DNA of 64,000 nucleotides from a virus: IMG/VR virus record IMGVR_UViG_3300009159_000048, positions 30,242 through 94,241 of that record; one strand, given 5' to 3'. Below, one piece after another: positions 59,399 to 61,830 of this stretch (position 1 is its first letter; each line of letters starts with the position of its first letter). Under the pieces are notes generated by a model. That model made no database searches and was not told where the DNA came from. It worked only from the letters and a program-made list of their open reading frames with translations. The translations under genes and the position numbers were made by a program.

Positions 59399-61549
59399 AT
59401 GAGTATTAAAGAGACACAAGAAAGGCAAATGATATTCACTACTAAGTTAGTAGATGAGGCAACAGATAAGATAAATGATGGTATTGTTGTTAAACGATAT
59501 CAAAATCCATGGCTAAAGAGTGAAGTAGGTCTTAGAAGACAAGGTGTTACTTTTAAGATGACCGCGAGTGAACAACAAGAGTATGTTAGATGTGCTGTTG
59601 ATGTTCACTACTTTGTAGAAAAATATTGTAAGGTGAAAAGAGAGGATGGTTCTATAGGATCTATCAAACTAAGAGATTATCAGAAAGAAATGCTTGACAA
59701 CTTTGTTAATAGTAGATTTAATATACTAATGGCTTCTCGTCAAGTTGGTAAGACTATCTCATCTTCTATTTTCATGTTACATAAAATACTATTTGACAAC
59801 GATAAAAATATAATGATTGTTGCCAACAAAGGAGATACGGCTGTAGAGATTGTTGATAAGATTAAGTCAATCTATTCATTATTACCTTTCTTCTTAAAAC
59901 CAGGTATTAAAACTTGGAATCAAAAGTCATTAACATTTGAGAATGGTTGTAGAATTAAAACATCAGCTAGAACAAAGACACCAGCCATCGGTTTTACCAT
60001 TGACGTTCTTTATCTTGATGAGTTTGCTCACATTCCGTCTAATATTATTGAACCATATTATACAGCCGCTTTCCCAACCACAGCAGCCGTTCAGAATTCT
60101 AAAATTATTATTACATCTACTCCCAACGGTATGAACTTATTCCATAAGTTATTAACAGATGCGGAAAGACCGGATGGTGATCCACAGAAAAACAACTACA
60201 AACCGATGAGAGTTTACTGGTATCAAGTACCGGGAAGATTCGTTACTTACATACGATTAAATCCACATAAGATGTACGAACACGGTGTTGATAAAGAAGA
60301 TATATTTAATCTTGTTAACGAGACTTGGGGACCACAAACTAAGGTTTTCATGGAATATAATATGGATTTATTAAAAGATGTCATAAATGTTTTCAATAAT
60401 GATTTGTGTACAGATGAGAATGTTAAAAAAATGATGTTTATTGATAAAAATGGTCTTGAAGTACCTATTATGGCAATTGCTGAAATGACAACTTGGAAAG
60501 AAGAAGCTATAAAAGATATTGGTGGAGAAGACGCATTTAACCAAGAATATGGTTTGAGATTTATAAACTCAAGTAAGTCACTTCTAAGTGAAGGAATAAT
60601 TGAAGAATTACTTAAAAATAAGAAAAATTACACATACGAAGATATATTTGAATTCGATAAGTTTATTAGGTTCAGTTATGAAGGATTAAAGTGGATTGAT
60701 GATGATGATGTATTCATACCAATTAAAAGAAAAAATTATAAAATTGTACTATCGGTCGATATTTCAGAAGGTCTCGGACAAGACTACTCTGTTATAAATA
60801 TATTTAAAATTGTCAATAAGTCAAAAGATATAATAGACCAACAAAAACTCTCATATAAATCAATTGTAGACTTTTTCAGATTAGAACAAATTGGATTGTT
60901 TAGAAGTAATATAATATCAGTAAAACAATTATCAGAACTATTATATGTTTTAGTATTTGAGTATCTTAATCCAGAAAATGTAAAGGTGGTCTTAGAATTA
61001 AACAACTACGGAAATGCTCTTCTTGCTGAAATGCCTCACGTATTTGATGGAAATAATAATTATGGATCTAGTGTATTTGTTAGATACAAACACAGAGCGG
61101 ATTCAACCGAAGAAAAAATAGGTCTAAAAGTAGGTGAAAATAAAAATATGTTGGTAAAAGACTATCAAGATTTAATGCTAAACAAAGGATTTTCAATAAA
61201 CAACGAAGAAACAATTAGAGAAATAACAACTTTTGTTAAACACACAACATCGGCCGGAAACATAAAGTACGCAGCTGATGTAGGACACGACGACTGTGTA
61301 ATGACTATTGTCAACGCCACTTCAATATTTAATAAAAATGAATTTAGAGAAATGGTAGATGAATGGATGTCTAAAGAACTTGAAAAGGAATTTTCAAATT
61401 ATATAAACCAATGTTTATCAAATATTGATTATGTAGAGGGAGTAGACTATGGTCAGGTACTGAAAGTAAGAAAACAATTTCAGAACAGATATAAATCAGG
61501 AGGATCTTCTGGGGGAAATAACTTAGACTGGTTTAATAGAAAACTTTAA
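59399..61549 (+). CDS. 17: Terminase large subunit (T4 gp17)
   Basis: 716 residues from ATG 59399; a TTG one codon earlier is possible. Packaging ATPase and headful nuclease. Motifs: adenine-binding LRDYQKEML, Walker A SRQVGKT (113-119; T4 has SRQLGKT), Walker B VLYLDE (203-208), coupling motif IITSTPNG (237-244), then the RNase H-like nuclease with VDISEGLGQDYSV (Asp454), VVLELNNYG (Glu533) and VGHDDCVM (Asp631). All catalytic residues are present. It is about 100 residues longer than T4 gp17 (610), mainly between the ATPase and nuclease domains (about 315-375). Overlaps ClpS tail-to-tail by 4 nt. Confidence 0.97.
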   Translation: MSIKETQERQMIFTTKLVDEATDKINDGIVVKRYQNPWLKSEVGLRRQGVTFKMTASEQQEYVRCAVDVHYFVEKYCKVKREDGSIGSIKLRDYQKEMLDNFVNSRFNILMASRQVGKTISSSIFMLHKILFDNDKNIMIVANKGDTAVEIVDKIKSIYSLLPFFLKPGIKTWNQKSLTFENGCRIKTSARTKTPAIGFTIDVLYLDEFAHIPSNIIEPYYTAAFPTTAAVQNSKIIITSTPNGMNLFHKLLTDAERPDGDPQKNNYKPMRVYWYQVPGRFVTYIRLNPHKMYEHGVDKEDIFNLVNETWGPQTKVFMEYNMDLLKDVINVFNNDLCTDENVKKMMFIDKNGLEVPIMAIAEMTTWKEEAIKDIGGEDAFNQEYGLRFINSSKSLLSEGIIEELLKNKKNYTYEDIFEFDKFIRFSYEGLKWIDDDDVFIPIKRKNYKIVLSVDISEGLGQDYSVINIFKIVNKSKDIIDQQKLSYKSIVDFFRLEQIGLFRSNIISVKQLSELLYVLVFEYLNPENVKVVLELNNYGNALLAEMPHVFDGNNNYGSSVFVRYKHRADSTEEKIGLKVGENKNMLVKDYQDLMLNKGFSINNEETIREITTFVKHTTSAGNIKYAADVGHDDCVMTIVNATSIFNKNEFREMVDEWMSKELEKEFSNYINQCLSNIDYVEGVDYGQVLKVRKQFQNRYKSGGSSGGNNLDWFNRKL

Positions 61550-61830
61550 CTGTTAACTTCCATTGTTACACTCAGACCAGAAATTTGAAGTTTTTCCTTC
61601 ATTTTAGAAACTGTATCATAATCACCATATTTAACATCACATTTACCGTTAAAGTGAACAATATGAGCACATTGAGAAGCTTGTTCAAGCTCATGTCCAC
61701 ATATTTTCATCAAACAGTTGATAACATGTTCAAATGTATTATAATCATCATTATGTAAAATTATTCGATAAGGTGAAGATAAAATCTCTTCTACTTTTGA
61801 ATTAGTTTTGGTTTTAGTAATTGTTGCCAT
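61546..61830 (-). CDS. clpS: ClpS-like adaptor protein
   Basis: 94 residues, full length for ClpS. The N-degron pocket is recognisable: LHNDDYNTFEHV with Asn27, Asp28, Asp29, and IVHFNGKCDV with His59; the 32-residue spacing equals E. coli Asn34 to His66. The E. coli gatekeeper Met40 position is Phe33 here, which could narrow or shift specificity. Known role: delivers proteins with N-terminal Phe, Leu, Tyr, Trp to ClpAP and blocks other ClpA substrates. In a phage it could redirect or dampen host proteolysis. The flexible N-terminal arm needed for delivery is present (about 18 residues). Confidence 0.9.
   Translation of the reverse strand: MATITKTKTNSKVEEILSSPYRIILHNDDYNTFEHVINCLMKICGHELEQASQCAHIVHFNGKCDVKYGDYDTVSKMKEKLQISGLSVTMEVNS

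What the first reader, a model, noticed from the sequence alone, without database searches (positions are those of the whole stretch)
61546..61830. Phage-encoded ClpS with altered gatekeeper position
All N-degron pocket residues are kept with exact spacing, but the position of E. coli Met40 is Phe. A phage ClpS could redirect ClpAP to host proteins bearing particular N-termini or shield phage proteins. It is linked with a HAD_SAK phosphatase in one transcript and ends against the large terminase gene.
Basis: partly seen in the sequence, partly recalled or inferred. Interest (0 to 1): 0.7.

Follow-up and report, generated by a model that had tools for sequence, protein, structure and literature searches.

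The report
Huge-phage ClpS adaptor beside terminase
A huge bacterial virus carries its own copy of ClpS, the adaptor that feeds proteins with certain first amino acids to the cell's protein shredder; the "odd" pocket residue is simply normal for its Bacteroidota hosts, but the gene is kept by almost every member of this virus clade.

Summary
Window 61546-61830(-) encodes a 94-residue ClpS (Pfam E 2.9e-20; the predicted fold matches solved ClpS structures). It ends 4 bases inside the tail-to-tail large terminase gene and lies 18 bases downstream of a HAD_SAK gene on the same strand. The source is a 94-kb fragment of a huge phage of the "Mahaphage" kind, whose complete relatives (634 and 642 kb) were predicted to infect Bacteroidetes.

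The highlighted novelty, Phe in place of E. coli Met40, is not an alteration by the phage. Phe occurs in 59/59 distinct viral ClpS and in 77/78 Bacteroidota host ClpS, with Ala/Thr/Ser in place of Met62. The viral clade nests inside host ClpS. "All pocket residues kept" is therefore only partly right.

What is more interesting: clpS is a core, purifying-selected gene of the clade (76 of 77 terminase-anchored loci). Large members also carry ClpP and a ClpC about 70% identical to host ClpC, but lacking the whole N-domain, the docking site for ClpS. So the phage ClpS most likely works on host ClpC, while the phage's own ClpC-deltaN/ClpP runs without this adaptor. Phage ClpS as such is already known. 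Function is untested.

The parts
61546..61830 (-). clpS: 94-aa ClpS-family N-recognin/adaptor (N-terminal extension about residues 1-19, core 20-94; Asn34-equivalent is N27, Met40-equivalent F33, Met62-equivalent A55, His66-equivalent H59)
61849..62361 (-). HAD_SAK_1-family putative phosphatase, 170 aa, DxD motif FDFDDT; upstream neighbour of clpS in the same direction
   Evidence: Pfam PF10307 E 7e-10; same-strand neighbour in 65 of 65 testable terminase-anchored loci
62365..62376 (-). TATATATTTGTA, a Bacteroidetes-like -7 element (TAnnTTTG) just before the HAD start; possible promoter of HAD-clpS
   Evidence: TAnnTTTG in 28 of 31 distinct upstream regions; exact motif only once in the window, not enriched there; weak
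59396..61549 (+). large terminase subunit (T4 type), convergent with clpS, 4-nt overlap of the ends
   Evidence: Pfam PF03237 E 1.9e-20, PHROG 5989; context conserved
58728..59354 (-). conserved 208-aa protein of unknown function, part of the conserved block
57883..58731 (+). conserved 282-aa protein of unknown function, part of the conserved block
53583..56618 (-). 1011-aa protein of unknown function, conserved in position
62439..62897 (+). 152-aa membrane/coiled-coil protein, weak Rz-spanin-like PHROG matches; divergent from HAD-clpS
62894..63394 (+). 166-aa protein with signal-like start and coiled coil

Best explanation
This is a ClpS orthologue that an ancestor of a clade of huge Bacteroidota phages took from its host and has kept ever since. 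Shown by sequence: it has the ClpS fold, the alpha-amino-binding residues and the host-type hydrophobic pocket, is under purifying selection, and sits in a fixed place between terminase and a HAD gene. Inferred: during infection it binds proteins with large hydrophobic N-termini (some made by the host Aat transferase), docks on the N-domain of the HOST ClpC, and so raises or re-weights ClpCP turnover towards N-degron proteins and away from other substrates. The phage's own ClpC, which lacks the N-domain, would not respond to it and would work with phage ClpP independently. Which proteins are degraded is not known.
For: ClpS identity. Pocket residues fixed in 59 distinct viral copies. pN/pS 0.23 pooled over 253 pairs, median dN/dS 0.144. 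Present in 76 of 77 terminase-anchored loci chosen without reference to clpS. Viral copies form one clade (SH-aLRT 99) inside Bacteroidota ClpS, next to a Flavobacteriales sequence (closest cellular loci all Bacteroidota). Hosts have ClpS (195/198 genomes), Clp_N proteins (16/16) and Aat (15/16). Tested phages carry no Aat. Phage ClpC is 69-71% identical to a Flavobacteriales ClpC but starts about 140 residues later, without Clp_N. Published: ClpS, including the His-Tyr-Ala pocket form LinClpS1, acts on ClpA only if its N-domain is present (PMC12493166).
Against: No binding, expression or infection data. The ClpA-contact residues of E. coli helix 3 (Glu79, Glu82, Lys84) cannot be aligned unambiguously because Bacteroidota and viral ClpS are shorter there, so docking is unproven. 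Hosts already have ClpS, so extra copies must add dose, timing or a slightly different specificity. The window's record is a 94-kb fragment: its own ClpC/ClpP were not seen and are inferred from relatives.
Confidence: 0.6

Rival explanations
1. The phage ClpS acts mainly as a brake or decoy: it occupies the host ClpC N-domain and inserts its N-terminal extension in the pore, protecting ssrA-tagged or other phage proteins, rather than delivering N-degron proteins.
For: ClpS inhibits ClpA ATPase, auto-degradation and ssrA degradation in published systems (PMC12493166, PMC9663308). The viral N-terminal extension is of usual length and conserved (pN/pS 0.26).
Against: The N-degron pocket is invariant; a pure decoy would not need it.
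Confidence: 0.2
2. The gatekeeper change gives the phage ClpS a new N-degron range, redirecting the host protease to new targets.
For: Phe40/Ala62 differs from E. coli Met40/Met62, and Met40 excludes beta-branched residues in E. coli (PMC12493166).
Against: 77 of 78 host ClpS have the same Phe40 and all have a small residue at 62, so phage and host pockets should match.
Confidence: 0.07
3. ClpS serves the phage-encoded ClpC/ClpP machine, a fully self-contained viral Clp protease.
For: ClpS, ClpC and ClpP co-occur in the 634-, 642-, 436-, 262- and 476-kb relatives; phage ClpP keeps the Ser and His motifs and most copies a recognisable Asp motif; phage ClpC keeps the VGF ClpP loop.
Against: The phage ClpC lacks the N-domain that ClpS needs (PMC12493166); the 385-kb record has ClpS and ClpC but no ClpP match (may be incomplete).
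Confidence: 0.1
4. A passenger copy without function.
For: Redundant with host ClpS.
Against: Purifying selection, near-universal retention and fixed position.
Confidence: 0.03

Closest known systems
Bacteroidota chromosomal ClpS (e.g. Flavobacteriales MAG JAKRSD010000004, locus L105)
   Same: 68% identity over the core; Asn-Phe-Ala pocket; short C-terminal half
   Different: host gene, not beside terminase; in one host (G043) it lies next to aat
ClpS of other jumbo phages: Paride/PA5oct, Phosso, Atu_ph07 gp708, GAP32, Kaldavass (PMC6102473, PMC7824862)
   Same: phage-borne ClpS domain; for the general case, steering of host ClpAP was already proposed (PMC7824862)
   Different: unrelated origins and contexts (next to Hsp20, thymidine kinase, IF-3, S21); Paride and Phosso have Met40, while Atu_ph07, GAP32 and Kaldavass have lost key pocket residues
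ClpS in LR745206, LR756502 (634 and 642 kb, Mahaphage; PMC7162821)
   Same: same gene, 74-76% identical, same neighbours
   Different: nothing essential; those records are unannotated and the main text of that paper does not mention Clp
Leptospira ClpS1 (PMC12493166)
   Same: aromatic residue at 40 and Ala at 62
   Different: bacterial; His at 38 and Tyr at 40

Membership tests
ClpS (PF02617) | profile match above curated cut-off | tested here: met
   72.3 bits against cut-off 23
ClpS (PF02617) | ClpS fold | tested here: met
   AlphaFold mean pLDDT 80.6; Foldseek top 38 hits are ClpS chains or a malarial protein structure (4o2x), TM to target up to 0.97
ClpS (PF02617) | alpha-amino-binding residues Asn34, Asp35, His66 | tested here: met
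   invariant in 59 viral sequences
ClpS (PF02617) | hydrophobic pocket as in E. coli (Thr38, Met40, Met62) | tested here: not met
   Asn, Phe, Ala; but this is the normal state in Bacteroidota ClpS, so it marks a subtype and is not a family-defining feature
ClpS (PF02617) | N-terminal extension long enough to reach the unfoldase pore | tested here: inconclusive
   26 residues before Asn34 in 49 of 59 against 33 in E. coli and 26-58 in most hosts; function not tested
ClpS (PF02617) | docking to a ClpA/ClpC N-domain | not testable with these tools
   helix-3 contacts cannot be aligned unambiguously; needs binding assay
ClpS (PF02617) | binding of N-degron peptides | not testable with these tools
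   needs purified protein
Phage ClpC as ClpS partner | Clp_N domain | tested here: not met
   no Clp_N match in 13 phage records; phage ClpC starts after the N-domain
Mahaphage-type huge phage | closest terminase and synteny with the 634/642-kb genomes | tested here: met
   TerL 79% and 76% identical, same gene order; clade name from PMC7162821

The most novel reading that the evidence does not exclude
These phages run a split Clp strategy: a phage ClpS re-programs host ClpC through its N-domain, while a phage ClpC stripped of that domain, with phage ClpP, forms an adaptor-blind protease that neither host nor phage ClpS can redirect.
Probability: 0.3. Interest if true: 0.7.

Novelty: new member of a known kind. 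Interest (0 to 1): 0.4.

Why it matters
It shows that the N-degron adaptor is a stable, clade-wide gene of some of the largest known phages, with a host-type pocket. Together with a ClpC cut off exactly at its adaptor domain, it makes the question of whether phages rewire host regulated proteolysis through the N-degron pathway directly testable. The gatekeeper result also removes a tempting but wrong reason for excitement.

Tried and rejected
Altered gatekeeper as a phage invention: rejected by 77/78 host sequences. Chance or spurious ORF: rejected by Pfam, fold and conservation. A phage Leu/Phe transferase supplying N-degrons: none found in six tested phage records. A general phage promoter at TATATATTTGTA: not enriched in the window, one site against 2.9 expected. 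ClpS in Lak, 735-kb and 462-kb phages and in the jumbo phages pT24, PTm1, MA9V-2 and PAU: none found. HAD similarity to a solved structure: none by sequence. Papers on ClpS in Mahaphage: none in the library.

Full report
OBSERVATION. The ORF at 61546-61830(-) starts with ATG and encodes 94 residues. It matches Pfam ClpS with 72.3 bits against a cut-off of 23, solved ClpS chains by sequence, and by predicted fold ClpS chains with target TM-scores up to 0.97. It lies in a 94,241-base virus record. The terminase gene (59396-61549, +) meets it tail to tail with a 4-base overlap. A HAD_SAK_1 gene (61849-62361, -) lies 18 bases upstream in the same direction.

WHAT VIRUS. The nearest records in the phage collection are the complete 634-kb (LR745206) and 642-kb (LR756502) uncultured phages: ClpS 76% and 74%, TerL 79% and 76%, same gene order. 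The paper on huge phages calls this clade Mahaphage and predicts Bacteroidetes hosts for its genomes of more than 634 kb; its main text does not mention Clp (PMC7162821).

A CORE GENE OF THE CLADE. A scan of viral contigs found at least 214 relatives. To avoid picking loci by clpS itself, I also anchored on terminase. Of 77 loci with at least 400 bases beyond terminase, 76 have clpS convergent to it; the exception has only 404 bases left. HAD is upstream of clpS on the same strand in 65 of 65 testable loci. The block 1011-aa(-), 282-aa(+), 208-aa(-), TerL(+), clpS(-), HAD(-), 152-aa(+), 166-aa(+) recurs. Pooled pN/pS is 0.23 and median pairwise dN/dS 0.144, with many synonymous changes near saturation.

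THE GATEKEEPER. Against E. coli numbering, Asn34, Asp35, Asp36, Val43, Val65, His66 and Leu99 are kept, while Thr38, Met40 and Met62 are Asn, Phe and Ala. Across 59 distinct viral copies Phe40 and Ala62 are invariant. In 78 host sequences from Bacteroidota genomes (eight nearest, thirty best, forty from further down the ranking; a few genomes enter twice) position 40 is Phe in 77 and Tyr in one; position 62 is Thr 41, Ala 25, Ser 12; and 68 of 78 keep the alpha-amino-binding set. Phe40 is thus a host-lineage signature. Leptospira ClpS1, with Tyr40/Ala62, is a studied relative of this pocket type (PMC12493166). Other phages follow no single rule: Paride and Phosso, on proteobacteria, have Met40, while Atu_ph07, GAP32 and Kaldavass have lost pocket residues.

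ORIGIN. In a tree of 136 sequences (75 columns, so weakly resolved), 56 of 57 viral rows form one clade (SH-aLRT 99) inside Bacteroidota ClpS, beside a Flavobacteriales sequence (83). The ClpS of the 636-kb phage LR756504 sits elsewhere among Bacteroidota and not beside a related terminase, suggesting a second acquisition.

THE PARTNER. Large relatives carry one to three ClpP genes with conserved Ser and His motifs; the Asp motif was matched in most copies, and the short 188-aa copies show only a looser match. They also carry a 701-711-aa ClpC that keeps the VGF loop for ClpP and is 69-71% identical over about 700 residues to the ClpC of a Flavobacteriales genome, but starts about 140 residues later: the N-domain is gone, and no Clp_N match exists in 13 phage records. 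Published work shows ClpS does not affect ClpA lacking the N-domain (PMC12493166). Sampled hosts have Clp_N proteins in 16/16 and Aat in 15/16 genomes; in one, clpS lies next to aat. The phages have no Aat. Hence the likely partner is host ClpC. This is inference; docking residues could not be aligned with certainty.

DISTRIBUTION. No ClpS was found in the 735-kb and 462-kb phages, three Lak phages, or pT24, PTm1, MA9V-2 and PAU. It is a property of this clade, plus the 636-kb phage, not of all Bacteroidota jumbo phages.

NOVELTY. Phage ClpS and the idea that it steers host ClpAP were already published (PMC6102473, PMC7824862). What I did not find described is its near-universal retention in this clade together with an N-domain-less ClpC. 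I rate it a new member of a known kind, interest 0.4; the split-machine reading would deserve 0.7 if shown.

Noticed in passing
L091, L092, L095, L096, L312, L313: Phage ClpC genes about 70% identical to host ClpC with a clean loss of the N-domain, replaced by a short acidic leader.
   Followed up: partly
L082, L084, L099, L100: A gene whose product carries a HAD-like FDWDDN motif lies near the phage clpP, as a HAD gene lies beside clpS.
   Followed up: no
L090 8001-8267: The 636-kb phage LR756504 has a different ClpS, closer to other Bacteroidota copies and not beside a related terminase: probably a second acquisition.
   Followed up: partly
L266, L267, L269: ClpS-like proteins of Atu_ph07, GAP32 and Kaldavass have lost N-degron pocket residues, so they may have another role.
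   Followed up: partly
L264, L265, L266: In other jumbo phages clpS lies near a small heat-shock protein gene (Hsp20), a recurring pairing.
   Followed up: no
63452-64000: An ORF running off the window end encodes long Gln/Ala/Gly-Gln repeats.
   Followed up: no
L300 747-1713: In a Bacteroidota genome clpS is directly next to aat (Leu/Phe transferase), a ready-made N-degron gene pair.
   Followed up: partly
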